34,992 nucleotides of DNA. Origin: a bacterium. GTDB taxonomy: Bacteria > JAGOBX01. Under the pieces are notes generated by a model that did not search any database, was not told the origin of the DNA, and saw only the letters and a program-made list of their open reading frames with translations. The stretch lies in assembly GCA_029551925.1 (NCBI GenBank), contig JAKPEO010000037.1, forward strand, positions 1-34,992, read 5' to 3'. The first letter of the stretch is position 1. Every line of letters starts with the position of its first letter. Position numbers and translations under genes: made by a program. Positions 1-31,787 of the stretch are shown in pieces.

Positions 1-3000
1 ATACAAATTTTAATTTTGTGAATCCGTTGATAAATGTAGAGACGACCGCTACGCAATATTCATATATACCGATGAATATTGATAGATATTATTGGCGTGT
101 GCGCGGTAAGAATAGTTTGCAGATTGGCGAATGGTCGCTAAAAAATATTTTAAATGTAAAAGATTTGACTCCCCCGAATATAATAAATTATTCTTTGACT
201 GATATGCATAATTTGAATATGGATATAAGCGATACTGCTATTAAAATATCTGCGTGTGTTAGTGATACTTCTATAATAAAAACTTTATCATTTGCATTTA
301 GTATAAATAATACAAGTTATACTGACCAGACATATTTTTGGTTGAATGTTAATACAGATACATACACCAAAATATTTACATTACCGAATTTATTAAATGT
401 TGGAGATACGATATACTATAAAATTTATGCAGAAGACATAGAAGGAAATTATACTAATGTTTATAGTTTTGTTGTGGTATCTACATTATTTATAGATTCC
501 CCAGTGTTTTCGCCGAATTTAAAAAATAAAACTAATAATGCTTTATTTACATTAACTGGCACAAAAAATCCGCGAACAAATGTTAGGATAAATGATAGTT
601 TTACTGCAATAAATACTTCTGATACTGAATGGCAAATAACATTATCATTAACATCAGAGACAAATATAATTTCAGCGAGAGCATATTTAGGTATGACTTA
701 TTCTGAAACTTCATATTTTACTGTGGTATATGATAATATCCCGCCAGTTTTTTCTGATAATATACAAAATACGATATATACGACAATTCCTACAATTATA
801 ACTATTACAGGAACAGACAATTTAACAGGTATAGATACAATACAATATAGAATAAATAGCGGCGCGTGGTTTAATGGCAATACAATTACAATAGATACAG
901 ACGGCTTATATTATATTCAATATCGCGGTTATGACGGCGTAGGTAATTTAAGCGCTATTTTAGATGGCGCTTATCCGGTATTATTAGATACCGCCAAACC
1001 GCAACCAGTTAATGTCTATGATGAAGGAAATATTAGCGCTGATACAATAATAGAATTTTTCTGGGATTTACCGATAGATAGCAGTCCAATAGTAAATTAT
1101 TATGTTCAGGTTGATAGTTCCACTTTATTTGTAACGCCGATATTTGAAAGTTGGACCAACAGCGCATCTTTATTTTTTAGAATATCAGGCGATTCCGGAA
1201 TAATCAATGGCGAGACATATTATTGCCGTGTGCGTTCAAAAGATGCGGTGGGCAATATTTCTGACTATGGTGCTGCAAGTGATGGGATATATATAGATAC
1301 TGCTATTGGCGAATCGTCAAAGCCGGAGCCGCCGAGTATTGATTCGCATCCATTATGGACGCGAAACAGTATTGTCACTTTAACCGGCACAAAAACAGAT
1401 ACTGAAAAATATATTTTTGTTAATAATTCATTAGCAGATATAAGCGGCAATAATTGGTCGCGCGTAGTAATTTTGAATTTCGGAAATAATGTATTGACAC
1501 TAACAAGTAAAAACGAATATGGCGTGACTTCTGATCCTGTATCAATCAATATTTATATGGATAACATTTCGCCGACGCGGCCGACATTTAATGTTGTTTC
1601 TCCGACGAATCAAGATACGCAATTAATAATAGGACAAAAAGCAAGCGATGCTGAAACAGTGTGGGTGAATGGAAATTTAGCTACTATTATAAGCGATACT
1701 TTATGGCAATATACCATTTCTTTGACAAATGAAATTAATATTGTAGAAGTTACATCATCAGATACCTTTGGCAATATTTCGGAAACAGTATCAAATACAA
1801 TAATATACGATACAGTGCCGCCGATAGAGCCGACAGTGAATTATATAAGTCCTTATTCTGGCTATGAACAGATTGTCAGCGGAACTTATGATACTGTTGC
1901 GACTGTATTGCTAACAGTCAATAATATTGCAGCTTCGTTAAATTCTGTATTAGGTATCTGGAATTTTACTTGTAGTTTATTAAATGAAGAAACAAATACA
2001 TTTACAATAAGAGCAATAGATGCAGCCGGCAATATCTCAACCAGGATATTTTATATAGTCCGCGATACATTAGGACCTGCTGCTCCTAATATTCTGTCGC
2101 CGTTTAATAATGCCGATGTTTTTGTCAGTCCTATAACTGTGTCGGGCACAGTGCCGGCAGATGCTGTCGGAGTGATTATTAATAATATTACTGATAATAA
2201 TATTTCGCCGAATGATACTTTTGCTGTTAACGTGCCATTGACGATCGGTAATAATCCTATTATTGCTTATGCTATTGATTCATTGGGCAATAAATCTTCG
2301 CCTACTGTTATAGTTGTAAATTATAACCCGCTCGCTTTTAAATTTGTATCAGAGCAATTGGATAATAATGAAATTTTAAATAATATTCCAGATAGTTTGA
2401 TAGTTTCATCAAATAATCAAATTAATTTTTCTACTATTACAAATACAACTGTAATTCTTACTTATAATAATGTTTCAAAAAATTATTCGATTATTCCGTC
2501 GCCTGATTCATATAGTTTTTATATTGTGCCGGCTGAACCATTTTTGATACATCGGACTTATAAATTAGAATTAACTACTGATATAAAAAATGTTAATGGC
2601 ATAAATTTAGGAGCAAATAAGATTTGGCTGTTCCGCACTGGAACTGATGACACAAAACCAGTTATTGTTTCATTTCAGACATTAGATCCGAATGGTAATT
2701 TGTTGATAGATGCATCTGATACCGGCATATTGTTAAGAGCGATAGCTACTGATACAGATATAGGTATTGACTATCTGCGTTTTGAATTAGGCGTAAATAA
2801 TCCGCGCCGCGATGATTATAATTTTACTTTTATGGATGTTGGGCAATCAACCGCTAATTTTCAAAAATTATTCACTGCCACTTTGAATGTAGACGATACC
2901 ATTTATACAGGTATATTTATTGCGGATTTAGCGGGAAATACGGTTGCATTATATGAAACAAAAACAGTCGGCGCGGTAATAGTGCCTGAACCGCAATTAA

Positions 3001-6000
3001 AAATCGGATTAGATACCACTGTATCTTATACGCCTATTTTATTAGAAGGGACAAAAGTGCCGGAAGTGTCTGTATTCATTAATGGCAATCAAGCGATTAA
3101 TATTGATACAGACAAATGGCGTTTTAATTTATCATTAAATCCTGGAATAAATAATTTTACAATTTTCGGGCGTATCGCTAATTCTGTGAGCCCTACGAGA
3201 AATCATATTGTTATTTATGATGTTACTCTGCCAACTGCCACAGATAATGCTCCGAGCGTGGCTGTCTATGATTCAAGAATTATTACTATAACTGGCATAG
3301 ACGAACAATCAGGCATAAAACGCACTTTATATTCTTTAAATGGTGGATCGTGGACTGTCGGTAATACAGTGTTGATTTCTAATGAATACGAAAATATTTT
3401 AAGATATGTAGTAGAAAATAATTGCGAATTATATTCAGATACTTATACAAAAAAAATCTATATAGACCGCACACGACCTGAACCAGTATATGTTACTGCG
3501 ACAAGTAGATATTCATTTGATACTACGCTTGTATGGTCTTGGGAAACGCCATTTGATTCGAGCCAGATTGTTAATTATATTATTCAAATAGCAGATGATA
3601 CTTCTTTTGCTAATTTAATAATTTTTGATACTGTCGCAGGTAATATAAATTTTATTGTTGCGCAAAATAATAATTTTCAAGATGGCAAAACATATTATTG
3701 TCGTATTGCCGCAAAAGACATAGCTGGCAATGTTTCAAATTATAATCCAGCTTATTATGAATTTTCTGCTATTACTATTGATACTAATTTAGCGAATCAG
3801 CCGTCGCCAGATACTCCTATTATTTTAATGCCTGCTAATGGCATTGAAACTAATGCCGCTAATATTTTAGTGAGAGGCATAAAAGATACAGATGCAACAA
3901 TTGTATTAGTTAATGGACTTTCTGCAACTATTATTGATTCTACTACTTGGACGCGTGTTATTCCACTAAATATATTAGGCGCGAATACAATTTATGTATC
4001 AGTTAAAAATATTTACGGTAAAGAATCTCCTGAAACTTATATTGTCGTGTATTTTAATAATGTTCCGCCAGCTGTGCCGATAATAACTACCACGCGGACA
4101 TTGACCAACAGCGAGACAATAGTAATTAGCGGTATTCGTGAGCCAGGCAGTTTTATTGCTATTAACGGCTCTACGCTCGGCATTTCGTTTGGTTATGATA
4201 CATTTGCTAAAACATTTATTCAGCCAGAAGGGCAGACAACTTATAATGTTGTAAGTTTTGATACGCTTGGCAATTATTCAAATACAGCGACAATTACTAT
4301 AACTGTGGATAAGACACCGCCTGCGCGTCCGACTGCAACTTTTACTTCGCCTACCAATAATTCGTATCAATTAATTTCTGGAACATTAGAAAGCGGCGCA
4401 TCGCTTTCTGTTAATGGCAATACAGAACAGGTTTTGATTTTTGGGACATTATGGCAGTTTCCTGTATCTTTAAGCGAAGGGGCAAATACTTTTACTGTAA
4501 TTTCGCGAGATTTAGCTGGGAATGCAAGTGATACTGTGTTTGTTATAATATTAGATACGATCGCGCCAGAAAAACCAAAAATATTATATCCGCCAAATGG
4601 CTATAAAACATCAGCGTCAAGTATAATAATCAGCGGTATCAAGCCAAAAGAAAGTTTTGTTTATATTAACGGTGTAATCGCAGAAAATAATAATTATATG
4701 GATACGCAGTGGTCAACCACCTATAATATGTTAGCAGGGTCAAATTTGATTACTGCTACAGCTCGCGATAATTTAGGCAATGTCTCTGATTTTGACCAGA
4801 TAATCGTAACATTTGATATAAATCTATTTTTAGTAGAAGTGCCGATATTAGAAGATAATGAATTTATAATGCCAACTAATAAAATAGACATACATCTGAA
4901 TAAACAATTAGATACAAACTCATTGAATACTGACAATATTTATCTTTTAAACTCACAAGGGCAGCGGTTAATTCCTGAAAATTTACTATATAATAGCGCA
5001 ACAAATGTTATTTCTGTTTATTATCCATTAGCGCCGAGCAAATCATATCAATTATTCATTTCCAGAAATTTGACTGATATTAATAGTGTAAAACTTCCGC
5101 AAAATCGAACATATAATTTTACTGTTTTAATAAATAAAGATACTGAAACAATAATCAATAATGATGAGTTTTTATCAATTTTTACGCCGCAAAATGCATT
5201 GTCTAATAATGCTTATTTTGTAATCAATGAATTATCGACTAATGACGCGCTTGTATTAGTGGCAGATGCTAAAATAGATTTTGCTGGATATATGCGTAAT
5301 TTAGGCGCATATAGAAAAATTTATCGCTTGAACGCTTTTGAAACGAATGGAAATAGTATAAATTCGTTTTTGATACCCCTGCTATTAAAAATAAATTATG
5401 CTGATAATAACAACGACGGTATTTTAGATAATACGACTTTAAAAACAAAATTTTTAGATTTGTATTATTTAGATACAAATGATAATACTTGGAAAAAATT
5501 AACAAATTCATTCAGCGATACGATTAATAAATATGTATCATCTGATTTATCTAAACCTGCGATATTTACTGTATTCGGCGGATATTTAGATGCGGATACC
5601 AAAGTGATGTTTATCGATTCTTTGAATAATGTAAGATTAAAAATTTATAATCCAGAAACAAATGACGCTTATATAAAAGCAACGGAAATTAATCCTTATG
5701 ATAATGCGAAAGTTATTGCTGCGGATAATAAATTACTGTCTGAGAGTGGATTTGTTAAATCATTGGGGATAGCGCGAAATGTTTATGAAATAAAAGCATA
5801 TAATAGTGCAGATCAGATTATCGCTAATTTTAATGAACCGATGATATTATATCTCGGCTGGGCTGATATTAATAATGACGGGATTATTGATAATACAGAT
5901 GTTGAAGAAAAATATGTTACTATTTATAGGTTGAATGAAGCTAACAATATTTGGGAAAAAATACCTACGCAGGTTGATGCCACGAATAATTTAGCGTATG

Positions 6001-6314
6001 CGCTGCTTAATCATTTTAGTATTTACACTTTGTTTGGCGTGAATTATAGTTCAGGGCAAATATTATTTTATCCTAATCCGACAATGAATAAAAAAATAAA
6101 TTTGCTTGCTGTTCCTCAAGTAAGTAATATATTATCGTTGACAATAATAAATCCGTTTGGGCGGATAGTATATCAGAATCAATTTAATGTAACACCGGGG
6201 ATTGAAAATCATATTACAAATATTGATTTATCAAAATTGCCGGTTGGCGGATACTATGCAAAAATTATAATGGACGGTATCGAAAAAATTTTAGGAGTAG
6301 GTATAGCAAAATAA
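1..6314 (+). CDS. Giant Ig/Fn3-repeat surface protein, 5' partial, with C-terminal T9SS-like sorting domain
   Basis: The reading frame is open from the window edge (first full codon at 3) to TAA at 6312, so the GTG at 18 is only an internal codon and the true start lies upstream. At least 2100 residues remain. Modules seen in order: an Ig-like module (168-480), a glucodextranase-like Ig module (about 490-720), a chitobiase-like 'IPP...SG' module (about 735-960), an Fn3 module (about 1000-1300), four Ig modules (1310-2330) and a Big_5-like module (2340-2650). The same nine-module order then repeats at 2652-5140. Two related domains follow (about 5210-5590 and 5650-6040), each with a DxNxDGIxD Ca-binding-like loop (near 5401 and 5868). 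An 85-residue tail from 6050 carries YPNP and ends ILGVGIAK, resembling Por_Secre_tail. Likely an exported cell-surface adhesin or structural protein, with the barrel gene directly downstream. Repeat reading is firm; substrate and partner are unknown. Confidence 0.85.
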   Translation, partial: TNFNFVNPLINVETTATQYSYIPMNIDRYYWRVRGKNSLQIGEWSLKNILNVKDLTPPNIINYSLTDMHNLNMDISDTAIKISACVSDTSIIKTLSFAFSINNTSYTDQTYFWLNVNTDTYTKIFTLPNLLNVGDTIYYKIYAEDIEGNYTNVYSFVVVSTLFIDSPVFSPNLKNKTNNALFTLTGTKNPRTNVRINDSFTAINTSDTEWQITLSLTSETNIISARAYLGMTYSETSYFTVVYDNIPPVFSDNIQNTIYTTIPTIITITGTDNLTGIDTIQYRINSGAWFNGNTITIDTDGLYYIQYRGYDGVGNLSAILDGAYPVLLDTAKPQPVNVYDEGNISADTIIEFFWDLPIDSSPIVNYYVQVDSSTLFVTPIFESWTNSASLFFRISGDSGIINGETYYCRVRSKDAVGNISDYGAASDGIYIDTAIGESSKPEPPSIDSHPLWTRNSIVTLTGTKTDTEKYIFVNNSLADISGNNWSRVVILNFGNNVLTLTSKNEYGVTSDPVSINIYMDNISPTRPTFNVVSPTNQDTQLIIGQKASDAETVWVNGNLATIISDTLWQYTISLTNEINIVEVTSSDTFGNISETVSNTIIYDTVPPIEPTVNYISPYSGYEQIVSGTYDTVATVLLTVNNIAASLNSVLGIWNFTCSLLNEETNTFTIRAIDAAGNISTRIFYIVRDTLGPAAPNILSPFNNADVFVSPITVSGTVPADAVGVIINNITDNNISPNDTFAVNVPLTIGNNPIIAYAIDSLGNKSSPTVIVVNYNPLAFKFVSEQLDNNEILNNIPDSLIVSSNNQINFSTITNTTVILTYNNVSKNYSIIPSPDSYSFYIVPAEPFLIHRTYKLELTTDIKNVNGINLGANKIWLFRTGTDDTKPVIVSFQTLDPNGNLLIDASDTGILLRAIATDTDIGIDYLRFELGVNNPRRDDYNFTFMDVGQSTANFQKLFTATLNVDDTIYTGIFIADLAGNTVALYETKTVGAVIVPEPQLKIGLDTTVSYTPILLEGTKVPEVSVFINGNQAINIDTDKWRFNLSLNPGINNFTIFGRIANSVSPTRNHIVIYDVTLPTATDNAPSVAVYDSRIITITGIDEQSGIKRTLYSLNGGSWTVGNTVLISNEYENILRYVVENNCELYSDTYTKKIYIDRTRPEPVYVTATSRYSFDTTLVWSWETPFDSSQIVNYIIQIADDTSFANLIIFDTVAGNINFIVAQNNNFQDGKTYYCRIAAKDIAGNVSNYNPAYYEFSAITIDTNLANQPSPDTPIILMPANGIETNAANILVRGIKDTDATIVLVNGLSATIIDSTTWTRVIPLNILGANTIYVSVKNIYGKESPETYIVVYFNNVPPAVPIITTTRTLTNSETIVISGIREPGSFIAINGSTLGISFGYDTFAKTFIQPEGQTTYNVVSFDTLGNYSNTATITITVDKTPPARPTATFTSPTNNSYQLISGTLESGASLSVNGNTEQVLIFGTLWQFPVSLSEGANTFTVISRDLAGNASDTVFVIILDTIAPEKPKILYPPNGYKTSASSIIISGIKPKESFVYINGVIAENNNYMDTQWSTTYNMLAGSNLITATARDNLGNVSDFDQIIVTFDINLFLVEVPILEDNEFIMPTNKIDIHLNKQLDTNSLNTDNIYLLNSQGQRLIPENLLYNSATNVISVYYPLAPSKSYQLFISRNLTDINSVKLPQNRTYNFTVLINKDTETIINNDEFLSIFTPQNALSNNAYFVINELSTNDALVLVADAKIDFAGYMRNLGAYRKIYRLNAFETNGNSINSFLIPLLLKINYADNNNDGILDNTTLKTKFLDLYYLDTNDNTWKKLTNSFSDTINKYVSSDLSKPAIFTVFGGYLDADTKVMFIDSLNNVRLKIYNPETNDAYIKATEINPYDNAKVIAADNKLLSESGFVKSLGIARNVYEIKAYNSADQIIANFNEPMILYLGWADINNDGIIDNTDVEEKYVTIYRLNEANNIWEKIPTQVDATNNLAYALLNHFSIYTLFGVNYSSGQILFYPNPTMNKKINLLAVPQVSNILSLTIINPFGRIVYQNQFNVTPGIENHITNIDLSKLPVGGYYAKIIMDGIEKILGVGIAK
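168..5140 (+). repeat. Two tandem copies of a nine-module protein block (about 2.49 kb each)
   Basis: Copy 1 is about 168-2651 and copy 2 about 2652-5140. Corresponding landmarks are offset by nearly constant distances: TPPN at 168 and TKPV at 2652 (2484), the GTK turn at 558 and 3048 (2490), the Fn3 D-S-S motif at 1077 and 3555 (2478), and the Big_5 NE motif at 2370 and 4860 (2490). Module order is the same in both copies. The match is at protein level; the DNA has diverged, so the duplication is old. Confidence 0.82.
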
Positions 6315-6318
6315 TGCT

Positions 6319-8385
6319 ATGTTGAAAGGATTAGTTTTAAAAAAATATTTTATCATAACGATGCTGGCGTTTATTATTATTTTTTTTAGACAGCGCTCTT
6401 ATGCTGTTGATAATGTATATGTTGACGATTATCTGTCAGCGGAAGCGCCGATTTCAGCCGCGCTTTTAGGGCTCTGCAATGCTGATTTGCATGATACCAA
6501 ATTGCCGGTGAGCGTAATATACAATCCGTCATTATTATCAAATTTACTTTCGCCGAATGTTTCATTATCTAAATCTGATTTGCCGTTAAAAGCGCAATAT
6601 AATAGTTTGTATTATTCTCAACCGTTTTTAAATGGCGGGCTCGGATTGGCTTATAATACTTTAACTCTCGATGATGAATTATTTGTTCAGACTAATGATG
6701 CTGGTTTTATAATTAATAATGGCTATAAAGTTTCATATTCAGCGTTATCTCTTGCATATGCCAGAAAATTTGAAATTTTCAAAAAAATGTTTGATGTAGG
6801 TCTGTCATTAAGGCAATTAAATTTAGCGGTGGCGAATACTTCATATTCCGCTATTTCTCCAATATTGGCGTGTTTATATACATTTAAAAATACAAACATA
6901 ACTTTATCGCATTCTATTACTAATTTTATTGGCGGGACAATTGGCGATGATAAATTACCGATGCGTCTGAAAACTTCCGCGAATATTAATATTCTAAAAA
7001 ATCTAAAAATTATTCCTGAATTTGAAAAAGTAGATGCGCGTATGGATTATCGGCTCGGAATAAAATATTCGCCTATAAAATTAGTTAATATTTATTCTGG
7101 CTATCAGCCGAGCAAAATATCTTTGGGTTTTGAAATATTATATTCGGATTGGGCTATTAATTATGCATATCAAACAAACTCTAATTATTTTGCTGAAAAA
7201 AATATTTCGTCTATGGGTGTTACTTGGAATATCGGATATAATAGAAAATTGCGAATGAATATTTATCGCAGTGAAATGCAGAATATTAGAAAATTAGTTG
7301 ATCGCGATGAAAATTACGACAGCGCAATTGTAATATTGAATAATTTAAAAAAAGTTTTGCATCCTAAAAGTGATGTGGATGAATATGATAATGTAGTATA
7401 TCGCATTGAACAATTGCAAAATTTAAAAAGAATACGCGATGAAATGCGCGAAAAAACTGAAGCTGAAAATAAAAGTTATTTAGAAGAAGCGGCAAGATTG
7501 ATTAATGAAAATTCTTTTGATTTAGCGCGCAAACAAATAGAGAAAATCGATGAAACCAGTCAATATTATGAAGAAGGTTTGAAATTGATGATAGAACTTG
7601 AAAAACGCGAACAAGAATCCGCAAAGAAAAAAGACGAATTATCACAAAAACAAATAGAATTTTTGTTAAGCGCTCTTGACGCTACAAAAGATATATTTGT
7701 GAAAATAGATATACTTGAAAAATTGATAAATTTATCACCGCTTGACGAATATAAAAATTTACACGAGCGTTTGAAAAAAGCGTCAGTTAATTTTACACAA
7801 CGTACTGAATCGCTTACTGAAACTTTTGATATAAATAGGCAATTATTAGATATCAATGCTGAACGCGCAACGCAATATTTAGAAAACGCAAGAAAATTTT
7901 TCAAAGAAAGACGCTATGAATTTGCAAAATACGAAATTCAGCGCGGTAGAGATTTATTAAAGGATTATAGATGGGAAGAACCATTTATGCAGCAAATAGA
8001 ATTTGAACTTGCCAAAGTTAAAGAAAGAGAACAATTGTCAAGATTAGACGACCAAAACAGAATGATGGCTTATAGATTAGCGGTAAATGAAGATTATGAA
8101 AGAGCGCTTACATTTTGGAATCGCGTGGTAAACCGCACGCCAGCAGATGAAGAAGAAATCCGAAAAATTACAGAAGCGATGCGTAAACGCGGTATAGCCA
8201 CAACTGTAAAAGTATCAAAAGCTTTGACGCCAGAAGAACGGCAATTGATAGAACAATTATTTATTCAAGGCAAACAATTATACATAGCGGAAAAATTTGC
8301 TGAAGCAAAAGAAAAATGGAATAGAATTTTGCAGTTAGATCCAAATAATGATAAAGCGAAAAGATATTTGAAGATGGTAGAATAA
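6319..8385 (+). CDS. Outer-membrane beta-barrel (PorV/UPF0164-like) fused to C-terminal helical/TPR domain
   Basis: 688 residues. A signal peptide at 1-30 (basic start, long hydrophobic run, cleavage near RSYA/VDN) leads into alternating amphipathic strands to about residue 310. That region resembles the PorV-like barrel at 30693: both have an LPM/LPL-x-K-S stretch followed by paired strands ending in a YAY motif and a final strand. Residues 310-635 are long charged helices with coiled-coil character, and 640-688 form a recognisable TPR (GKQLYIAEKFAEAKEKWNRI). The helical part probably lies in the periplasm. The ATG is 4 bp after the giant gene's stop with no Shine-Dalgarno site, suggesting coupled translation. 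Role inferred: partner or exporter of the upstream CTD protein. A plain PorP/SprF-like or lipid-transport barrel is an alternative. Confidence 0.7.
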   Translation: MLKGLVLKKYFIITMLAFIIIFFRQRSYAVDNVYVDDYLSAEAPISAALLGLCNADLHDTKLPVSVIYNPSLLSNLLSPNVSLSKSDLPLKAQYNSLYYSQPFLNGGLGLAYNTLTLDDELFVQTNDAGFIINNGYKVSYSALSLAYARKFEIFKKMFDVGLSLRQLNLAVANTSYSAISPILACLYTFKNTNITLSHSITNFIGGTIGDDKLPMRLKTSANINILKNLKIIPEFEKVDARMDYRLGIKYSPIKLVNIYSGYQPSKISLGFEILYSDWAINYAYQTNSNYFAEKNISSMGVTWNIGYNRKLRMNIYRSEMQNIRKLVDRDENYDSAIVILNNLKKVLHPKSDVDEYDNVVYRIEQLQNLKRIRDEMREKTEAENKSYLEEAARLINENSFDLARKQIEKIDETSQYYEEGLKLMIELEKREQESAKKKDELSQKQIEFLLSALDATKDIFVKIDILEKLINLSPLDEYKNLHERLKKASVNFTQRTESLTETFDINRQLLDINAERATQYLENARKFFKERRYEFAKYEIQRGRDLLKDYRWEEPFMQQIEFELAKVKEREQLSRLDDQNRMMAYRLAVNEDYERALTFWNRVVNRTPADEEEIRKITEAMRKRGIATTVKVSKALTPEERQLIEQLFIQGKQLYIAEKFAEAKEKWNRILQLDPNNDKAKRYLKMVE

Positions 8386-8412
8386 AAATTTTATAGTGTC
8401 GAGCGCGCTTTT

Positions 8413-8435
8413 AAAAAGTGCGAACCGCGCTTTTT
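8413..8435 (+). terminator. Intrinsic terminator
   Basis: Ten-base-pair stem with one G-U pair: left arm 8413-8422 (AAAAAGTGCG), loop AAC, right arm 8426-8435 (CGCGCTTTTT). The G+C-rich core followed by five T is typical of rho-independent termination. The A-tract on the left arm means it could also work in the other direction. It lies 28 bp after the barrel-TPR stop and separates that block from the promoter at 8593. Confidence 0.8.
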
Positions 8436-8592
8436 AAAGAAATTCTATGTCAGACATCTTGCCTGATAAATATTAAATTTCATATCATCATAAAATACAG
8501 CGCGTAACTAAAAAAATTATTATTATAATTCCGCACAATTTTTTAAAATAAATTCTGCCTGCGTTTTGGATAATTTAAAAATTTTATTTGTA

Positions 8593-14569: not shown

Positions 14570-14575
14570 AAAATT

Positions 14576-21065: not shown

Positions 21066-21071
21066 CAAAAG

Positions 21072-22387: not shown

Positions 22388-22844
22388 AAATAGCGGCTTT
22401 ACATTAATAGAAGTAATAATTTGTTTGATAGTTATTTCTATTATCTCATTATTTTTTACAGATATTTTTAATAATGTTATAAATTTATCTGGTTCAATAT
22501 TAAAAAAAAATAATTCGATACTCGATACTGATTTAATGATCAAACATTTATCCGATGATATTCTTCATTCTATTAATTATGAAATACCGAACAGTGCGCA
22601 ATTAAAATTAATGACATTTGACAATTCTATTTCTGATACCACAGAAGCGATTGCGATTATTTATACTTTTAATAATCCATATCTTTATAAATATCATAGT
22701 TATTTTAATGATACATCGTATTTTTCCCAGGAATTTGATAATTTTGTTTTTTTAGCGAATGTATTTAGCGATACATTAATATCAGTAGAATATAAATTAA
22801 AAGGCGAAGATATTAAAAAAATTAATTTCACTATGAGAAACTGA
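22377..22844 (+). CDS. Second pseudopilin (GspJ-like), apparent ATT/ATC start
   Basis: 155 residues if the ATT at 22377 is used. No ATG, GTG or TTG lies between the in-frame TGA at 22371 and the signal sequence; the first such codon, TTG at 22425, would remove the prepilin cleavage site. With ATT 22377 the leader is seven residues ending in Gly7, the same length as in the preceding pseudopilin, then FTLIEVIICL with Glu at +5 and a hydrophobic helix. The mature part (DTDLMIKHLSDDILHS and later strands) resembles GspJ-type minor pseudopilins. It probably pairs with the upstream pseudopilin. A sequencing frameshift is an alternative, but each frame alone carries a complete pilin signal. Confidence 0.8.
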   Translation: MINKNSGFTLIEVIICLIVISIISLFFTDIFNNVINLSGSILKKNNSILDTDLMIKHLSDDILHSINYEIPNSAQLKLMTFDNSISDTTEAIAIIYTFNNPYLYKYHSYFNDTSYFSQEFDNFVFLANVFSDTLISVEYKLKGEDIKKINFTMRN

Positions 22845-22980: not shown

Positions 22981-23535
22981 ATGACAGAAAATCTCGAGGA
23001 AAAATTGAATCAAGAATTGCAGGAACTTGATAGTTTATTAGATTCTGAAATCAGCAATTTACAGAATTCCGAAAAAAACATAAATAATAATGTTGCTACC
23101 GCTAACGTATTGAAAGAAAAACAAGAAAATAAGATACCTTCTATAAATGAATTAAATGCAGAAAATTATACAGCAAAAGATTATATATCGCTTGGTCGTA
23201 AAGCGTATTTAAAAGGAATGCGAACAGATGCACTTCAATATTTTCAAAAAGCAGCGGAATTAGAGCCGAATAATTTAAACGCGGTTTTTAATATTGGCGT
23301 AATTTATTTAGACCGTGAAGAATATGAATTAGCAATGAAGCAATTTGAACAGGCATTAGAAATTAAACCAGATGACTATAAATCATTATGCAATCTTGCA
23401 GGTATTTATTATAAATTAGGTAAATTACGCGAAGCATACGATATACTAAATCGCGCAATTGCAATTAATCCCAATGATATTAACAGCATCCAAAATATGA
23501 AATTAATAGAAAAAAAAATATTAAAGAAAAAATAA
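22981..23535 (+). CDS. TPR-repeat protein, cytosolic
   Basis: 184 residues without signal peptide or membrane segment. Residues 1-30 are a charged, Leu-rich helix suited to coiled coil, then an Asn-rich linker. Three canonical TPRs follow at about 62-95, 96-129 and 130-163, each ending in the P-N/D-N/D turn (LEPNN, IKPDD, INPND), with a final capping helix. Proteins of this kind bind partner peptides; the partner is not shown. Its gene opens a transcription unit with a strong Shine-Dalgarno site, and the giant secreted protein starts 38 bp downstream. A role in handling that protein before export is possible, but only inferred from position. Confidence 0.85.
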   Translation: MTENLEEKLNQELQELDSLLDSEISNLQNSEKNINNNVATANVLKEKQENKIPSINELNAENYTAKDYISLGRKAYLKGMRTDALQYFQKAAELEPNNLNAVFNIGVIYLDREEYELAMKQFEQALEIKPDDYKSLCNLAGIYYKLGKLREAYDILNRAIAINPNDINSIQNMKLIEKKILKKK

Positions 23536-23573
23536 TTTATTTAACAAAAAAAGAGTTATTCGGAGAAATTATT

Positions 23574-26500
23574 ATGATTGGTAAATTATTAGAGCAAGTA
23601 GTAAAAATAAAGTTATGGTTGTTATTTGTTTTTATTATTTTTATTACTAGAAATATATTTGCTCAACCGACTGATATTAATTATATTGAATTTTTTAGAG
23701 AAAATCCAAAATCTGCGCAGCAATTAGATACAGTTACAACTTTTGCTCTTGAAGATTTTGTGTATATAAAAATTACAGCGCAATTAGGCGGTAGTTTACT
23801 TAATCCGCAGACAACTGACACTTGCGTAGTGCGATTGACCAATCTTACAACTTCAGAATATATAGATGTAATATTTGACAGAAAAATCGGATCTGATACT
23901 ACCAGTGCAGATTCGACATATTACTTTATTAGAGAGGGGTTAAAAAACATTCAGTTAAAATATATCGGATTGACGAATAATGATAATAATTATTTAGGTG
24001 CTTATTACGGACATACTATAAGTGTATCTGTATTAGGCGGTTTTACGAATACAAAAAATTTTACTATTGTCACGCCGACAGAACCAGCGAGTTTAAATTC
24101 ATTGTATATAATGAACAGTTCTTATACAGAAAGGATAGCAGAAACTGTTAGATTTACGCAAGGTGATATTGTTTACTTACAAGCAACAGCGCAGCAAGAT
24201 GCTCAACTGCTAACGCAAGATAGTTTATTAGTGACAGTAAAAAATAGCGACGGGACATTGATGACTGTTGAATTATTAGAAACAGGTAAAAATACAGGGA
24301 TATATCGAAGTAGCGAAATACAGATTACAAATTTAACTAATCCTAATCAAAAGACAATTGAAGAAATATTTGGCGATTCTGTATGGTTCGAAGCGAAAGG
24401 AAAATCAGATACCTTGTATTTTGTTGTGCCAAAAGTTCCACAGCAGATATACAATGCAAAATTTTATTATGGTGGTTTTACGAATTTAATGAGTTCGCAA
24501 TCATATCAAAAGCCATTGAATTTTTATGTACAGGTGGTAGCGCAAGATTCAGAGCCGTATTATATAGATACTTTGCCTGTAATTGTTCAACGCGCTTCAT
24601 CTAATGCGGATAGTATTATTGTGATTTTAACAGAGACTGCTAAAAGTTCTGGATTATTTCGTTCGCCGCTGATTACAATCGGCGATATAACAAATCAAAA
24701 TACATTGACATTGCGCGGAGAATATGGCGAAACAATCGGCTTGAGAATCAGCAATACTATTTACGATACTTTTTTATTATCTCCGAATACATCTGTAGAG
24801 CCGGCTGCATTAACTGCATTTACTTTGATGACCGCAAATTATGGAACGATTTTACCGGATTTTTATAAAATCGTCAAAGGCGATAGAATATATTTGCAAG
24901 CTACAGCGCAAACTGATTTACAGCCGTTAGTAGCGGATACTTTTCTTGTAAATGTAAAATTAAATGGCACTTTGATAATGACGATTACAATGTTAGAAAC
25001 TTCTTTGAATTCCGGTATTTTTAGAAATAGTGATATTGTAATAGCGGATAATACTGATAGTTCATTAAAAACAGTAGCAGAAACATTCGGCGCGCCATTA
25101 ACATTTGAAGCTAAAGGATTGACTGACACTGTGTATTTTGCGCTGCCGACTACTCCACTGGTAAATTTAGGGAATGCAAAATTTTATAATACATTATTTA
25201 CTCAAAGTTATTCACAACAAAAATTTGATAAACCATTGAATTTAGCAATAGAAATAAATGCTACTGATTTAGAACCGTATTATGTCGATACTTTATCTGT
25301 GATTGTTCAACGAAGAAATTCAAGCGTTGATTCTATTGCGCTGATATTAACTGAAACATCAAAAAGTTCTGGAAAATTTAGAAGCGAAAATTTTACAATA
25401 GACAATTATACAAGTCAGATTCAAAAGAGATTACGTGCAGATTATAATGACACAGTCGGGTTGGTTATTAATGGAGTATTGCACGATACGATATTGATTA
25501 ATAATGCTTCCGGTCCTAATATGCTGTATGAAATTTATTTTACTAATTCGGCTTTTACCGTAAAATTACTTGATAATGAAAGAGTGGATATTAATGAAAG
25601 ATTGTATATTGAAGCGAGCGGCGATTACGGCAATTCAAATTTAATTGATACTTTCAGCGTTTTTGTTAGAAATAATAGAACCGGCGATTCTGTTAGTATT
25701 GTATTAACCGAAACATCAAGAAATTCCGGAATTTATCGTAATTCCGAAATTTTGATTAAGGAACTAACATCGCAATATTTGAAATATTTAAAAGCGAATT
25801 ATTATGACAGTATCAGTATATTAAGCAATTATAATGTTTCTGATACGATTTATGTAGTGTCTCCATCTTCGCCTACGACTATATATGACGCGTTTTTTCA
25901 AAATGAACAATTCACAGATATTTTAAGCGGCCGTAGATTGCCGTTAAATACAAAATTGAATGTTTCGTTATTTTCAGAAGATTTAGAAATTAAATATAAT
26001 GATACAAACACTATTTATATTAGAAATACAGTAAATGGGGATTCTGTATTTGTTCAAGCGCGCGAAATAAGTTCTGGAATTTTGCGGACATTAAATTTTG
26101 TGACATTAGGAGATTATACGAATAATACATTATTTACGTTAAGAGCGGCAGAAGGCGATACGATTAATTTAATTATTAATAATAGAATTTATGATACGAT
26201 TTATTTAGTTACTAATAATTCGAATATTGTTGCTACATCATTTAATTTTTTATATAGTTTAGATACTTCTGCGATACGCAGCGATACGCGATTTCCGCCG
26301 TATTCTACTGTGTATATAGAATTAAATGGAATTGATAATGATGCATTTTCACAAAATTATGTTTTTGTCAGCGTAATAGATAAATTTAATCAAACCATAA
26401 CAGTGCGATTAAATGAGACTGGCTTAAACACTGGCAAATATCGCGGGCAATTTCATTTAAGAAGTTTTACAGACCAAACAAATTTGTATATTTATGCTTT

Positions 26501-29500
26501 TGATGAAGATGATACTATTAGAGTTATTTATAATGGTTTGACAAATTTGGAATTGCAATTAGTTTTGAAACAGCGCACATCATCAGGGCAGATAGTATCA
26601 ATAAGATTTAAAAATCAAGATTATTTTGAAGATTATATGAGCGAATACAATTTTGATGATGTTGTATATATTGAAGCTGTAGGATATGATTCAAATCCTT
26701 ATACAGTAGATATAATTGAAATTGAGTGTTTTGCATATACTGGCGTTCTGCCGAATCCTCCGTCATCAGAAAAAAGAATTTATGTTAGATTAACTGAAAT
26801 TGCGAAAGATGCTGGGATATTTAGAGGAACTTTTAGTTTAAAAAAATTAACGAATGATACGATAGATGATTTGCGAGTTGATTATGGCGATACAATACGA
26901 GTAAGAGTAAAAGAAGATAATTCAGTATTTGATGAAAAGCGCGTTACGATTCCTGTTTCGCCGATATATATTAACGAACTGAAATTCTATACTGATGGTT
27001 CGTTTGGAGAAATTCTTCCATATTATAAACAAAAAGATTTTTATGATGTGTTATATATTCAAGCGACTGGTTCAGATATAAATCCATTAAATGCAGATAC
27101 AGTAGGCGTAATTTTATACGATGCTACTTTGTATCGTGGTGAAGCAGATACTGGCGCTGGATTGATTATAGATATAGAAACATATAAATTAGTTGTTGGA
27201 AATTTTGTGAATTTGTCGTTAATTGAAACCGATAAAAATACTGGTATTTATCGCGGGCAGATCGGGATAGGGATAGATAATGTTAATAGCGAAGAATTAG
27301 GGAAAATAATAGGAACCTCGCGCGGTAATAATATTTTGTTATTTTGGGAAAATGATTTTAATCTATGGCATGCGCAGGGCAGACCAATTGGCGCTGATTC
27401 GCAACCGATATTGCGTTCAAAAGTTAAAATGATAGAATATGACCAGCCAGATTATATTCGCGAAATACAATTTATGAAGGACCAAACATATACAGAATTA
27501 TTACGCACTCCGCATTTGACAATGCAGCAAAGTTTAGAAAATAATCTGCCGTATTTGAAATATATTTATGTTCGTGCATTTGCTGATACAATGACAGCTT
27601 CTGATTTATTAGAAGATACTTTTGATTTAGTATTAAAGGTTTATTCATTAGATGAAAATGGCAATATTATTTGGGATATAGCAAATTCTGATGCGCTTGA
27701 TACTTTGGCAAATGAGGGCAGAAATTCATTGAAAGTTGTAAATATTAGAATGGTAGAAGAAGGGAAAAATTCTGGAATTTATACAAATAAAAATGATGTT
27801 AAAGCGATAATCGGGTATGATGCTACTACTCAAGCGCCGCAATCGCAAGATGGGCAGGTTATAGGTATAAATTTTTCAGAAGCGCCGTATCACTTATTGG
27901 TAGTAGAACCGACTATAAGGCATGGATTTAATAAAGATACTGCTTTGATAGGGCGTAAACCGCCGACGTCTAAAGCTGATTCGACTATAATAGCAAGTGA
28001 TACATCATTTATTGCTTTTCCTATTCCGCCTCGTATTATAAATCGCGTGCGAATATTTGAAGATGCCAAATATATTAATCCATTAATACCTGCTGAACGA
28101 ACATATAGTCCGCCATTTGATAGATTGTATATAAAAGCAGAAGATTCGTATGATTTAGCAGCTGAAAAATTCGGTGAAATATCATTAGAAATTTGGTCTA
28201 ACGATGCTTTGAAAGATGAGGTATATTTGCATTTAAGAGTGTGGCCATTTGAATCAAAATATTTTGATTGGCATAATCCTACTGGCGAATTTTATAAAGA
28301 ATACGGTGATTCTGTATTGATAGTGCGTTTACTTGAAACAGGTCCGGCAACAAATGAATATATTATTGATCCAACGCGTACGCCTAGATTAGTTACGCGC
28401 TTGGATATTAATACGCCTAAGCATACAAATCAAAGCGCTCAGGAATTACATATACTTAAAGGCGATACTATTACAGTTCGAGCATGGAATGATGTATTGA
28501 AAAAATATGTTGATACATTACATCAAGATGACACTCCGTATATTTTATTTCAATCAGCGCTGAATAGATTTCCGCGAGTAAGAGAATTAAAATTAATGAA
28601 TGCTACATATACAGAAGAATATACAAATAATTTATTGCATAATCAAAATATTTATATTCAGGTTTACGGTAGCGAAGGCGGAGGTAATCCAATATTAGTA
28701 GATACTGTGCCTGTAAAAATTACTAATTTAACTGGCGGAATATATAGCGATACATTAGAATTTTTCTTAACTGAAACAGATGTAAATAGCGAAATTTATA
28801 GATTATCTGGTGCGATTTTTCCGAAATTAGATAAAGAATATACTTTGGTTGAAAGTAAAATTTTAAAAGCTGATACAGGTCAATTTATTTTGTTTGAAGC
28901 ATTTGGTCAAGCAAACACTTATTTTGGTTTGACTAAACAAGTAGCGTCACCACGTAAACCTACTACTATATACAGCGTGAAAATTACTAAAGATTACAGC
29001 GGGATTTATGATTATATCGGCGATGAATATAGACAATTTGCGCGTGGTACGACAATATATATTGAATTAAGTGCAGATCCGGGCGACACGGCGTTAATTG
29101 ATAATACGGGCGATGATGTATATGTAGAAAATGGCCGCGGTCAGAAAATTTATGTTACATTAGTAGAAGATAATCCGTCATCAGGAAAATATCGCGGGTC
29201 ATTTAAAATAACTGATTTAACTAATGATACGCTCGATGAATTAGGCGTATTAGATAATGAAACATTTGTTGTTCGGACAAATGCGGATCCTACAAAGTTT
29301 TCAACTTTTGCGCAAGTAGCGACGCCCTCGCCTCCGCGTTTTATTAGTTCTATTGGTTTGAAAAATAGTTCTTACAGCAAAACTTTATTAGAAGAAACAA
29401 AAAATACTGTTTTTAATAGACAGAAACTGTATGTAGAATTAAATGGTCAGGACGCAAATTCTAATATTGTTGATAGAGTAGATATTTATGTGATAAGTTG

Positions 29501-30635
29501 GGCAAATAGAAATATCACGAGCGATACGCCTGCGGGATGGATTAAGATTCCATTAATTGAAACTGGCTTGAATACTGGTAAATACCGCGGCGATGTGCAA
29601 TTAGGCGATTATAATGATACTGACCAGCGAATGATAAAAACGTCTCCAAATTATTTAATAGCAGTTATTCCAGTAGCGATATATGAAGATACTCAAAGTT
29701 ATTTATTAAAGGACGGAGATATACTGTCTAAACCGCCATACAGACGAATAGAATTGTCATTAGCAGGCGGCTACGCTGATACTGCGTTTGTTACAATGAC
29801 TTCTTCGCCCACACAGATTTATGGTATTACTTTAAAAGATGAATCTTATACGAGACATAGAATTGTTAATAAAGAAAATCCGATGCGTTACGGCGAAATA
29901 ATATATGTTGAAGCGCAAGGAGATATCGCGAATGATTTATTAAAAGATACCACATTAGTAGAGGTTGTAGGTATTGATGTGAATGGCAGTGAAATGCCCG
30001 CTACGCGATTGATAATAGAGTTAGTCGAGAGTGATGTAAAATCCGGGACATATCGCGGAAAATTTAAAATAGCGAGCGATCCATACACTCAATCTCAGCA
30101 AGCGCGTGCATTTTATGAAGAAGATTATTATGTTCAGCGCATAAGTACTGCTCCGAAATTAGCGCAGGATTTCGCGCCTATATTAGATGCGGGCGTGCCG
30201 ATTAGCGATCCGTATTTAGCGCTGTTTGGTCCGCAAAATGCAGCGTATTTTATTATTCGGTCGATTATTTCGCCAGCTATTACTTATGGCGATACTAATT
30301 CTGCAGCGATAGATGCTTCGTCGATATTTAATGTATTTCCTAATCCTTGGAAACGCGGAAACGCATTATATGATTTTGTGGAATATAAAGGTACTATAAG
30401 AAATGGTATTAGATTTACCGGTTTGTCCAATGACGCGACAATAAAAATTTATGATATTGCTGGAAGATTGGTATTTTCGAGTCCGTGCGAATCAGGAGAT
30501 TCGCAAGATTATGGACAATTTTTGTGGACTGGTATTAATAATGATGGCAAGCAAGTAAGTTCGGGAATTTATATATATACGACGCGCGATAGAACTGGCG
30601 AGATACGAAAAGGAAAAATTGCGATATTAAAATAA
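23574..30635 (+). CDS. Giant secreted repeat protein with FlgD/T9SS-like C-terminal domain
   Basis: 2353 residues, complete. A signal peptide at about 1-34 ends NIFAQ/PTD. The body holds about fifteen repeats of 110-170 residues, each with an L-x-E-T-x-x-x-S/T-G-x-Y/F-R core. Early repeats add a G-x-T-I-x-L-x-x-x-x-x-x-D-T-I close. Similar 'ETG-NTGxF' beta-domains occur in surface proteins of other bacteria and archaea. Repeats between residues 173 and 650 arose by duplication of a two-domain block. The final 104 residues (from about 2250) contain FPNPW, then IKIYDIAGRLVF, WTGINNDGKQVSSGIYIY and KGKIAILK, the FlgD-like Ig fold that serves as a T9SS or related sorting tail. GGAG lies 8 bp before ATG. 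It is followed by a PorV-like barrel. No catalytic domain is seen, so it is probably structural or adhesive. Confidence 0.88.
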   Translation: MIGKLLEQVVKIKLWLLFVFIIFITRNIFAQPTDINYIEFFRENPKSAQQLDTVTTFALEDFVYIKITAQLGGSLLNPQTTDTCVVRLTNLTTSEYIDVIFDRKIGSDTTSADSTYYFIREGLKNIQLKYIGLTNNDNNYLGAYYGHTISVSVLGGFTNTKNFTIVTPTEPASLNSLYIMNSSYTERIAETVRFTQGDIVYLQATAQQDAQLLTQDSLLVTVKNSDGTLMTVELLETGKNTGIYRSSEIQITNLTNPNQKTIEEIFGDSVWFEAKGKSDTLYFVVPKVPQQIYNAKFYYGGFTNLMSSQSYQKPLNFYVQVVAQDSEPYYIDTLPVIVQRASSNADSIIVILTETAKSSGLFRSPLITIGDITNQNTLTLRGEYGETIGLRISNTIYDTFLLSPNTSVEPAALTAFTLMTANYGTILPDFYKIVKGDRIYLQATAQTDLQPLVADTFLVNVKLNGTLIMTITMLETSLNSGIFRNSDIVIADNTDSSLKTVAETFGAPLTFEAKGLTDTVYFALPTTPLVNLGNAKFYNTLFTQSYSQQKFDKPLNLAIEINATDLEPYYVDTLSVIVQRRNSSVDSIALILTETSKSSGKFRSENFTIDNYTSQIQKRLRADYNDTVGLVINGVLHDTILINNASGPNMLYEIYFTNSAFTVKLLDNERVDINERLYIEASGDYGNSNLIDTFSVFVRNNRTGDSVSIVLTETSRNSGIYRNSEILIKELTSQYLKYLKANYYDSISILSNYNVSDTIYVVSPSSPTTIYDAFFQNEQFTDILSGRRLPLNTKLNVSLFSEDLEIKYNDTNTIYIRNTVNGDSVFVQAREISSGILRTLNFVTLGDYTNNTLFTLRAAEGDTINLIINNRIYDTIYLVTNNSNIVATSFNFLYSLDTSAIRSDTRFPPYSTVYIELNGIDNDAFSQNYVFVSVIDKFNQTITVRLNETGLNTGKYRGQFHLRSFTDQTNLYIYAFDEDDTIRVIYNGLTNLELQLVLKQRTSSGQIVSIRFKNQDYFEDYMSEYNFDDVVYIEAVGYDSNPYTVDIIEIECFAYTGVLPNPPSSEKRIYVRLTEIAKDAGIFRGTFSLKKLTNDTIDDLRVDYGDTIRVRVKEDNSVFDEKRVTIPVSPIYINELKFYTDGSFGEILPYYKQKDFYDVLYIQATGSDINPLNADTVGVILYDATLYRGEADTGAGLIIDIETYKLVVGNFVNLSLIETDKNTGIYRGQIGIGIDNVNSEELGKIIGTSRGNNILLFWENDFNLWHAQGRPIGADSQPILRSKVKMIEYDQPDYIREIQFMKDQTYTELLRTPHLTMQQSLENNLPYLKYIYVRAFADTMTASDLLEDTFDLVLKVYSLDENGNIIWDIANSDALDTLANEGRNSLKVVNIRMVEEGKNSGIYTNKNDVKAIIGYDATTQAPQSQDGQVIGINFSEAPYHLLVVEPTIRHGFNKDTALIGRKPPTSKADSTIIASDTSFIAFPIPPRIINRVRIFEDAKYINPLIPAERTYSPPFDRLYIKAEDSYDLAAEKFGEISLEIWSNDALKDEVYLHLRVWPFESKYFDWHNPTGEFYKEYGDSVLIVRLLETGPATNEYIIDPTRTPRLVTRLDINTPKHTNQSAQELHILKGDTITVRAWNDVLKKYVDTLHQDDTPYILFQSALNRFPRVRELKLMNATYTEEYTNNLLHNQNIYIQVYGSEGGGNPILVDTVPVKITNLTGGIYSDTLEFFLTETDVNSEIYRLSGAIFPKLDKEYTLVESKILKADTGQFILFEAFGQANTYFGLTKQVASPRKPTTIYSVKITKDYSGIYDYIGDEYRQFARGTTIYIELSADPGDTALIDNTGDDVYVENGRGQKIYVTLVEDNPSSGKYRGSFKITDLTNDTLDELGVLDNETFVVRTNADPTKFSTFAQVATPSPPRFISSIGLKNSSYSKTLLEETKNTVFNRQKLYVELNGQDANSNIVDRVDIYVISWANRNITSDTPAGWIKIPLIETGLNTGKYRGDVQLGDYNDTDQRMIKTSPNYLIAVIPVAIYEDTQSYLLKDGDILSKPPYRRIELSLAGGYADTAFVTMTSSPTQIYGITLKDESYTRHRIVNKENPMRYGEIIYVEAQGDIANDLLKDTTLVEVVGIDVNGSEMPATRLIIELVESDVKSGTYRGKFKIASDPYTQSQQARAFYEEDYYVQRISTAPKLAQDFAPILDAGVPISDPYLALFGPQNAAYFIIRSIISPAITYGDTNSAAIDASSIFNVFPNPWKRGNALYDFVEYKGTIRNGIRFTGLSNDATIKIYDIAGRLVFSSPCESGDSQDYGQFLWTGINNDGKQVSSGIYIYTTRDRTGEIRKGKIAILK
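24090..25523 (+). repeat. Two tandem copies of a two-domain block in the giant protein (period 717 bp)
   Basis: Copy A starts near 24090 (SLNSLYIMNSSY) and copy B near 24807 (ALTAFTLMTANY), exactly 717 bp or 239 residues later. Matching pieces include GDIVYLQATAQ and GDRIYLQATAQ, FEAKGKSDTLYF and FEAKGLTDTVYF, EPYYIDTLPVIVQR and EPYYVDTLSVIVQR. This block is much better conserved than other repeats of the protein, so it is a later duplication. Confidence 0.85.
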
Positions 30636-30692
30636 AAAAGAAAATAAATATGAAATAAAAATTATTGAACAACAAAACGGAGGCAGTTTTTT

Positions 30693-31787
30693 ATGCGAAA
30701 ATTAATATACTGTTTTATAATTGCAGTATTTAGTTGCAATATATTTATTTTTAAGATTTATGCTGGCTCGCCGGGCGAAAGTTATTTAGGACTCATCGGT
30801 ATTACTGATATAGCAGCGCGACCATCGGCATTAGGCGGCGCTTATGGCGCAATGGCTGAAGATATTAATGCTTTAAGATTTAATCCTGCTGGTTTGAATA
30901 ATATCAATCAATATGAATTTCAATTTACACATTTTGCAAGTTTTGAAGAGATTAATTATGAATCATTAATGTTTGGTATTCCGCTATTGACTTATAATGC
31001 TGCTGCTGGTATAGCGATAGATTTTTTAAATTACGGCGATCTTAATAAACGCACAAGATACGGTGAAGATAAAGGTAAATTTTCTGCCGATGATTTACAG
31101 TTGACTTTTGGTTATTCTCAAAAATTAAAAAATAATATCGATGTTGGAATGAATTTAAAATATTTTACTTCTAAAATAGAAGAAGAAAAAGCGAATGCAA
31201 TGGCTTTTGATGCGGGCACTTTATTAGCTATAGAAGAAAATATAATATTAGGATTTGCAGTTCAAAATTTAGGTGGACAATTGAAATATATATCTCAAAA
31301 AGAAGATTTGCCGTTGAATTTTAAATTATCTACTAAATACAAACCAATGCGTTTTGATAATCCTCCGAATATATTAGTGGATATAAATATTCCGCGCGGT
31401 AATAAAGTTAATTTTAATGTAGGTATTGAAATGTGGCTGAATGAAGCTGTGGCAGTGCGTGGCGGTTATAAAGATAAAGTTGACGAAGGTAAGATAATTG
31501 CCGGACTCGGTTTTAGAAGTTCAGTATTTCAATTAGATTATGCTTATATGTGGGCAAATGAATTAGAAGCTGCGCATAGAATATCTGCTATTTTTAGATT
31601 TGGCGGAGATAAAGAAAAAAATATTTATACTTCTAAAAAACGCGCGTTTGAACAAAGATTTGCTCCGCGCGATACTTATTATGATCCTGAATTGCAAACA
31701 AAAGAACGCACTAAACGCACATTTCAATTTGATAAAGATTTGAATGAAGAAATAATGTTCTTTACGCCGTTAGGGACAATAAAATAA
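30693..31787 (+). CDS. PorV/PorQ (UPF0164)-family outer-membrane beta-barrel protein
   Basis: 364 residues. A signal peptide at about 1-25 ends near KIYA/GSPG. The family opening ARPSALGGAYGAMAEDINAL then RFNPAGLNNI (about 43-72) is typical of PorV/FadL-like proteins. Alternating beta-strands continue to about 310, closing with LDYAYMWANELEAAHRISAI and FRFGG. Residues 310-364 are an added charged tail (KKRAFEQRFAPRDTYYDPEL). In T9SS, PorV binds the C-terminal domain of cargo at the outer membrane and delivers it to the attachment complex. The gene follows the giant CTD-bearing protein by 57 bp with no terminator and has GGAGG 9 bp before ATG, so cargo and barrel are probably made together. 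Core T9SS genes (porK-N, sov) are not in the window. Confidence 0.88.
   Translation: MRKLIYCFIIAVFSCNIFIFKIYAGSPGESYLGLIGITDIAARPSALGGAYGAMAEDINALRFNPAGLNNINQYEFQFTHFASFEEINYESLMFGIPLLTYNAAAGIAIDFLNYGDLNKRTRYGEDKGKFSADDLQLTFGYSQKLKNNIDVGMNLKYFTSKIEEEKANAMAFDAGTLLAIEENIILGFAVQNLGGQLKYISQKEDLPLNFKLSTKYKPMRFDNPPNILVDINIPRGNKVNFNVGIEMWLNEAVAVRGGYKDKVDEGKIIAGLGFRSSVFQLDYAYMWANELEAAHRISAIFRFGGDKEKNIYTSKKRAFEQRFAPRDTYYDPELQTKERTKRTFQFDKDLNEEIMFFTPLGTIK

What the first reader, a model, noticed from the sequence alone, without database searches (positions are those of the whole stretch)
1..31787. Twice-used cassette: giant CTD-tagged repeat protein followed by an outer-membrane barrel
The window holds two unrelated giant proteins, each ending in an FPNP/YPNP sorting-type domain, and each followed directly by a signal-peptide beta-barrel of PorV/UPF0164 type (4 bp and 57 bp gaps). 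In known T9SS one PorV serves many scattered cargo proteins. A barrel paired with each cargo would be a different arrangement, closer to two-partner secretion. TPR domains accompany both (fused in the first, separate upstream in the second), which strengthens the parallel. The pairing is seen in sequence; the functional link is inferred.
Basis: partly seen in the sequence, partly recalled or inferred. Interest (0 to 1): 0.75.

Follow-up and report, generated by a model that had tools for sequence, protein, structure and literature searches.

The report
Secreted giants with dedicated carrier barrels
This bacterium from a little-known lineage makes many very large secreted proteins, and for most of them the very next gene encodes a private outer-membrane carrier related to PorV, the shared carrier of type IX secretion; the same pairing turns up in more than a dozen other phyla where this secretion system is usually said to be missing.

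Summary
The pairing is real and is not limited to this window. In the 2.96 Mb genome, 17 of 22 assessable proteins with a type IX (T9SS) C-terminal sorting domain have a PorV-family barrel as the very next gene, and 17 of 20 assessable barrels follow such a protein (chance about 3e-32). Both window barrels are PorV relatives by profile and by model: 14 strands, best PDB match the PorV of the substrate-bound T9SS translocon. The sorting domains are type A-like and match PorZ, PorU and translocon-bound substrates. An SprA translocon gene is present; PorU (C25 peptidase) was not found here or in the sister genus. Within single genomes, sorting-domain and barrel divergence correlate (r 0.68-0.87). 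Orthologous pairs persist in the sister genus with unrelated flanking genes. The same order, cargo then PorV-type barrel, was found at 48 of 80 loci over many named phyla. So this is not two-partner secretion. It works like the type B CTD/SprF dedicated-carrier scheme of Bacteroidota, but is built from type A-like sorting domains and PorV-type barrels, outside Bacteroidota. Binding and secretion are inferred. Verdict: new variant of a known kind, widespread and, in the papers I could search, undescribed.

The parts
3..6314 (+). cargo A: giant repeat protein, 5' end cut by the contig start (at least 2103 aa; Glucodextran_B / Big / fn3-like / OmpL47-type repeats)
   Evidence: orthologue next to the orthologous barrel in the sister genus, 54% identity
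6033..6311 (+). C-terminal sorting domain (CTD) of cargo A, type A-like, with the YPNP motif
   Evidence: CTD profile hit E 2.4e-19 (this sequence is in the profile); TIGR04183 matches all 17 members at E<=0.1
6319..8385 (+). carrier A: signal peptide, plug, 14-stranded PorV/FadL-type barrel, then a helical TPR-like C-terminal half; 4 bp after cargo A
   Evidence: leave-one-out profile 87.5 bits; AlphaFold2 model with exactly 14 strands; best PDB match PorV 8gl6_F
6556..7230 (+). barrel strands of carrier A (residues 80-304)
   Evidence: pLDDT mostly 84-95
7243..8379 (+). C-terminal helical/TPR extension of carrier A (residues 309-687), expected to face the periplasm
   Evidence: Pfam TPR_2 E 6.6e-4, below its cut-off
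23574..30635 (+). cargo B: giant secreted repeat protein (2353 aa, apparent signal peptide)
30303..30632 (+). CTD of cargo B, with the FPNP motif
   Evidence: E 4.9e-28; TIGR04183; profile matches PorZ, PorU and translocon-bound substrate CTDs in the PDB
30693..31787 (+). carrier B: PorV-family 14-stranded barrel, 57 bp after cargo B, with an apparent Shine-Dalgarno (GGAGG) and a 50-60 aa helical C-terminal tail
   Evidence: NF033709 E 3.9e-48; model and structure match PorV 8gl6_F Z 33.4, 6h3i_F Z 32.7; junction
22981..23535 (+). TPR protein upstream of cargo B, no signal peptide seen; probably not part of the cassette
   Evidence: not seen to recur at the other cassettes

Best explanation
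Each unit is a type IX-like secretion cassette: a giant cargo with a type A-like CTD plus its own PorV-type outer-membrane carrier, encoded directly downstream. The cargo crosses the inner membrane by Sec and enters the SprA-like translocon. Its CTD binds the extracellular loops of its private carrier, which is docked at the side opening of SprA. The carrier-cargo pair then leaves the translocon, and the cargo probably stays on the carrier as its surface anchor, because PorU, which cuts the CTD off in known type A systems, was not found. Carriers with TPR or other C-terminal extensions could tie the pair to periplasmic structures, as the PorP-PorE pairing is proposed to do. A few CTD proteins without a neighbouring barrel would use the few barrels without a neighbouring cargo. 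Shown here: gene pairing, families, folds, presence of SprA, co-divergence, conservation of pairs, spread over phyla. Inferred: CTD-barrel binding, secretion, anchoring, energy source.
For: Own genome: PorV_fam hits, neighbourhoods, CTD inventory; 17 of 22 CTD proteins and 17 of 20 barrels are paired, most gaps between -8 and 89 bp (C85c overlaps by about 31 bp as called), P about 3e-32 assuming 2600 genes. CTDs: all 17 members of A1 match TIGR04183 type A, only 2 weakly type B; the profile matches PorZ, PorU and substrate CTDs seen in the translocon. Barrels: profile matches PorV 6h3i E 5e-34; both models match PorV first. SprA: E 2.4e-35, 2027-residue ORF, sister-genus orthologue 58% identical. 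Over 145 genomes PorV_fam occurs in 48 of 49 SprA-bearing ones and 17 of 96 others, Fisher 1e-22. Within-genome CTD/barrel distance correlation: own r 0.68, p 2e-4; G059 0.84, p 0.003; G046 0.87, p 6e-4. Orthologous pairs kept in the sister genus: C42a, C26, C51, C89a; flanking genes at C42a, C26 and C51 unrelated. Order cargo-then-barrel at 48 of 80 named loci, against 7 of 80 with a CTD in the downstream gene. PorU absent in G000 and G001 while found in 11 of 14 genomes compared. Mechanism by analogy: PMC10994853, PMC12635249, PMC12618676.
Against: No physical interaction was shown: the CTD-barrel model was one read-through chain and gave no interface score. Correlated divergence can also come from duplication of whole cassettes. 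No GldM/PorM was found here or in 13 other genomes compared (no positive control in that search), and GldK/PorK matches are only sulfatase-domain-like, so the energy source is unknown. The SprA match is below the family's curated cut-off. The genome is 86% complete. Five CTD proteins have no neighbouring barrel.
Confidence: 0.72

Rival explanations
1. The barrels are PorV-type carriers but not specific: any barrel serves any CTD protein, and adjacency reflects shared expression or duplication of the block.
For: Five CTD proteins lack a neighbouring barrel, so at least some must use a barrel in trans; crosstalk between carriers is reported in Flavobacterium (PMC12618676). Whole-cassette duplication alone would give correlated trees.
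Against: The one-to-one order persists across many phyla and across a genus boundary with changed flanks; a promiscuous carrier would not need one copy per cargo. Correlation holds within three unrelated genomes.
Confidence: 0.17
2. Two-partner secretion: the barrel is itself the pore through which the neighbouring cargo passes.
For: One cargo, one outer-membrane barrel, one apparent transcription unit.
Against: 14-stranded FadL/PorV fold with an N-terminal plug, best PDB match PorV; an SprA translocon is encoded; the sorting signal is C-terminal, not an N-terminal TPS domain.
Confidence: 0.05
3. The barrel is a FadL-type nutrient channel working with the cargo as a surface binding or digesting protein, like a SusCD pair.
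For: FadL channels are the next structural matches after PorV; one cargo is a subtilase.
Against: Cargo bodies are very diverse (Ig-like, invasin-like, beta-propeller-like, subtilase) while the CTD is the constant part and co-varies with the barrel.
Confidence: 0.05

Closest known systems
Type B CTD adhesins with SprF/PorP-like dedicated carriers, Bacteroidota T9SS (PMC12618676, PMC9143113, PMC12635249)
   Same: Giant CTD cargo, its own FadL-family 14-stranded carrier encoded directly downstream, a minority of orphan cargos (9 of 12 paired in F. johnsoniae; 17 of 22 here), SprA translocon.
   Different: Here the carriers are PorV/PorQ-family, not PorP/SprF (no TIGR03519 hit over cut-off), the CTDs are type A-like, and the genome is not close to any named Bacteroidota in the searches; several carriers carry fused C-terminal TPRs.
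Type A CTD substrates with the general carrier PorV and sortase PorU, Bacteroidota T9SS
   Same: CTD family, carrier family and translocon family; some compared genomes also have a C25 (PorU-like) CTD protein next to a PorV-family gene.
   Different: About 20 PorV-type barrels rather than one, mostly next to a cargo; no C25/PorU found in this genome or its sister genus.
Two-partner secretion (TpsA/TpsB)
   Same: Large exoprotein and outer-membrane barrel as neighbouring genes.
   Different: Barrel fold, signal position and presence of a separate translocon.

Membership tests
Type IX secretion system | SprA/Sov translocon | tested here: met
   TIGR04189 E 2.4e-35, below the curated cut-off of 200 bits but several ordered segments in one 2027-residue ORF; orthologue in the sister genus. 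Distant; phmmer against the PDB gave no hit.
Type IX secretion system | cargo with a T9SS C-terminal domain | tested here: met
   TIGR04183 in all 17 CTDs of A1 at E<=0.1, best 2.3e-10; PDB matches PorZ, PorU, translocon-bound CTDs
Type IX secretion system | PorV carrier | tested here: met
Type IX secretion system | PorL/PorM motor | tested here: inconclusive
   No TIGR03517 match in this or 13 other genomes compared, but no positive control rang; GldL not searched
Type IX secretion system | PorK/PorN ring | tested here: inconclusive
   Only weak sulfatase-domain-like hits, also in unrelated control genomes; PorN not searched
Type IX secretion system | PorU C-terminal signal peptidase (C25) | tested here: not met
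   None in G000 (86% complete), G001 (87%) or G117 (97%), found in 11 other genomes with the same model. PorU serves type A processing only; type B substrates stay on their carriers.
Type B CTD / SprF cassette | type B CTD (TIGR04131) | tested here: not met
   2 of 17 weakly, against 17 of 17 for type A; Pfam CHU_C matches 15 weakly, so the distinction is by degree
Type B CTD / SprF cassette | carrier of the PorP/SprF family | tested here: not met
   No hit over the TIGR03519 cut-off; one barrel matches it weakly but PorV_fam far better
Type B CTD / SprF cassette | carrier gene directly downstream of each cargo | tested here: met
   17 of 22
Two-partner secretion | Omp85-type TpsB barrel with POTRA domains | tested here: not met
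   14-stranded FadL/PorV fold with plug, no POTRA in either model

The most novel reading that the evidence does not exclude
Dedicated PorV-type carriers, one per giant cargo, are the common and possibly ancestral form of type IX-like secretion across many bacterial phyla; the single general PorV with PorU of Bacteroidota would be the special case, and the SprF scheme a parallel one.
Probability: 0.35. Interest if true: 0.82.

Novelty: new variant of a known kind. Interest (0 to 1): 0.62.

Why it matters
A 2024 paper states that T9SS genes are absent outside the Bacteroidota (FCB) group (PMC11285876), and type A substrates are described as all sharing one carrier (PMC12618676). If the reading holds, a type IX-like translocon with private carriers is a major, overlooked surface-display route in uncultured phyla. 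Each cassette is a ready-made matched CTD-carrier pair for asking what makes a carrier recognise its cargo.

Tried and rejected
Two-partner secretion: rejected on fold and presence of SprA. Coincidence: rejected. The first barrel being a different fold: rejected. TPR as a shared cassette part: only as a C-terminal fusion on some barrels; the upstream TPR gene of cargo B does not recur. One Pfam call failed on a wrong coordinate and was repeated without that protein. Paper searches for PorV with candidate phyla or Elusimicrobia found no description of this pairing; the library is open-access only, so this is not proof of absence.

Full report
OBSERVATION. The window is the complete contig C42 of a 2.96 Mb, 131-contig, 86% complete genome; only one other genome among 60 relatives searched is from the same family, the rest share only the domain. 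The two giant ORFs, their FPNP/YPNP sorting-type ends and the two following barrel genes are as described, with gaps of 4 and 57 bp. Cargo A lacks its start because the contig begins inside it. The two cargo bodies show no similarity to each other.

HOW OFTEN IT RECURS. The PorV/PorQ family model gives 19 hits in the genome. I read the surroundings of each. Fourteen directly follow, on the same strand, a protein ending in the same kind of domain. The first window barrel and two further barrels (C85c, C70), missed by that model, make 17 pairs. A profile of the CTDs finds 26 stretches, which I count as 22 assessable proteins plus one (C41) that ends at a contig edge and internal copies. Seventeen are followed by a barrel; five are not (C26a, C30, C4, C14, C110). 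Of 20 assessable barrels three lack a CTD neighbour (C85b, C41, and C36/C47, which looks like one gene split over two contigs); C17 is cut by a contig edge. With an assumed 2600 genes the chance of 17 of 22 is about 3e-32.

WHAT THE PARTS ARE. All 17 CTDs in alignment A1 (15 from this genome, 2 from the sister genus) match the type A sorting-domain model TIGR04183 at E<=0.1; two match type B weakly. Pfam CHU_C, FlgD_ig and Por_Secre_tail also match weakly. In the PDB the profile matches PorZ, PorU, gingipain CTDs and the substrate CTDs solved inside the translocon, 8glk and 8glj, with FlgD matches much weaker. The barrel profile matches PorV 6h3i_F at 5e-34. For structure I used the native DNA of cassette B read through its stops as one chain, CTD plus barrel, with aligned homologues from named loci: mean pLDDT 79.9, 14 strands behind a helical plug; best PDB match PorV of the RemA-CTD-bound translocon, Z 33.4. 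Carrier A has exactly 14 strands and then about 380 helical residues; its best match is again PorV. C11, C85a and C85c barrels also carry C-terminal TPRs by Pfam. Cargos range over Ig-like and invasin-like repeats, beta-propeller-like repeats and a subtilase.

THE REST OF THE MACHINE. SprA is present as one 2027-residue ORF matched in four ordered segments. C25 peptidase (PorU) is absent here and in the sister genus, while the same search finds it in 11 of 14 genomes compared. GldM was not found here or in 13 other genomes compared, without a positive control, so nothing can be concluded. GldK-like hits are weak and also occur in unrelated control genomes. PorP/SprF has no hit over its cut-off.

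ARE THE PARTNERS MATCHED? Within this genome, distances between CTDs and between barrels correlate, r 0.63-0.68, p 2e-4. In two genomes of other families, r is 0.84 (p 0.003) and 0.87 (p 6e-4); permutations were made only within a genome, so species history cannot cause it. Two smaller sets (G001, G080) were positive but not significant. Duplication of whole cassettes could also produce the correlation. In the sister genus, cassettes C42a, C26, C51 and C89a have counterparts in which the barrel points to that cassette and the cargo matches it too (for C51 a repeat-rich cargo matches C6 better); for C42a, C26 and C51 the flanking genes do not match. A fifth (L243) is less clear: its barrel is closest to C20 and its CTD to C40.

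HOW WIDESPREAD. Among 145 genomes, mostly one per family across the domain, PorV_fam occurs in 65 and SprA in 49; 48 of the 49 have PorV_fam (Fisher 1e-22). The best PorV hit of 13 of 30 other genomes follows a CTD protein; in fetched sets it is 8 of 10 (G059), 7 of 11 (G046), 4 of 5 (G080), and lower elsewhere. Some of these are PorU-type: a C25 protein lies beside the barrel. Of 80 named loci, 48 have a CTD protein directly upstream, against 7 with a CTD in the downstream gene; they include Elusimicrobia, WOR-3, Poribacteria, KSB1, Edwardsbacteria, Delongbacteria, Ignavibacteria, Caldithrix, Lindowbacteria, Firestonebacteria, Desantisbacteria, Sumerlaeota, UBP2 and Rhodothermales. Two or three of the four query barrels came from cassettes, so that fraction is biased upward. 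MAG labels are the submitters'. A tree places 16 of the 17 own barrels outside a well-supported clade of the barrels from other genomes, and carrier B inside it: a lineage-specific expansion plus one shared type.

MECHANISM AND COMPARISON. In Bacteroidota a substrate CTD binds the loops of a carrier in the SprA pore, and the pair is pulled off (PMC10994853). Type A substrates share PorV; each type B substrate has its own carrier, usually encoded directly downstream, to which it stays bound (PMC12635249, PMC12618676). In F. johnsoniae 9 of 12 type B genes are adjacent to an SprF-like gene and three orphans share one orphan carrier (PMC12618676). The numbers here, 17 paired and 5 orphan cargos with 3 orphan barrels, look alike. 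The most likely reading is a type B-like way of working built from type A-like parts, with carriers serving as anchors since PorU is missing. Binding, secretion and anchoring are inferred. It cannot be filed as a type B/SprF member (two defining features tested, not met); as a T9SS it meets three core features, PorU is not met, and motor and ring are inconclusive, so I claim 'type IX-like' rather than membership.

Noticed in passing
L075-L078, L159, L160: SprA-like translocon genes in 49 of 145 genomes sampled mostly one per family across the domain, 34 over the curated cut-off, although the literature confines T9SS to the FCB group. Names of these genomes are hidden, so how many lie outside FCB is unknown.
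   Followed up: partly
No C25 peptidase (PorU) in this genome, its sister genus or G117, all with SprA and many PorV-type barrels.
   Followed up: partly
window 22001-22844: Pseudopilin-like genes (FSLLELMISVFVITIALGAIV...) shortly upstream of cargo B.
   Followed up: no
L029:2892-10268(-) and L035:2520-6809(-): Giants downstream of two cassettes end in dockerin-like repeats instead of a CTD.
   Followed up: no
L030:10147-14235 and 14225-14863 (-): Cargo of cassette C20 appears split by a frameshift near its N terminus (real or assembly).
   Followed up: no
C89: barrel at 68672-70252 (L032/L033): Barrel C89b has a non-TPR C-terminal extension that by eye resembles a CsgG/TolB-N-like domain; two cassettes lie in tandem here, and the tandem is kept in the sister genus (L242).
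   Followed up: partly
L186-L192, L200, L209, L212, L229: Fermentibacterota PorV-family genes follow a small conserved protein of about 145-151 aa instead of a CTD giant.
   Followed up: no
L081 (contig C4) after 3937: About 14 kb with almost no protein-coding ORFs after a CTD gene, perhaps an rRNA operon or a misjoin.
   Followed up: no
window 23574-30635 and L040:2617-9843: Cargo bodies of cassettes C42b and C40 are homologous over about 1900 aa (27%), although their barrels are not close in the tree, hinting that cargo bodies and CTD-carrier pairs can be reshuffled.
   Followed up: no
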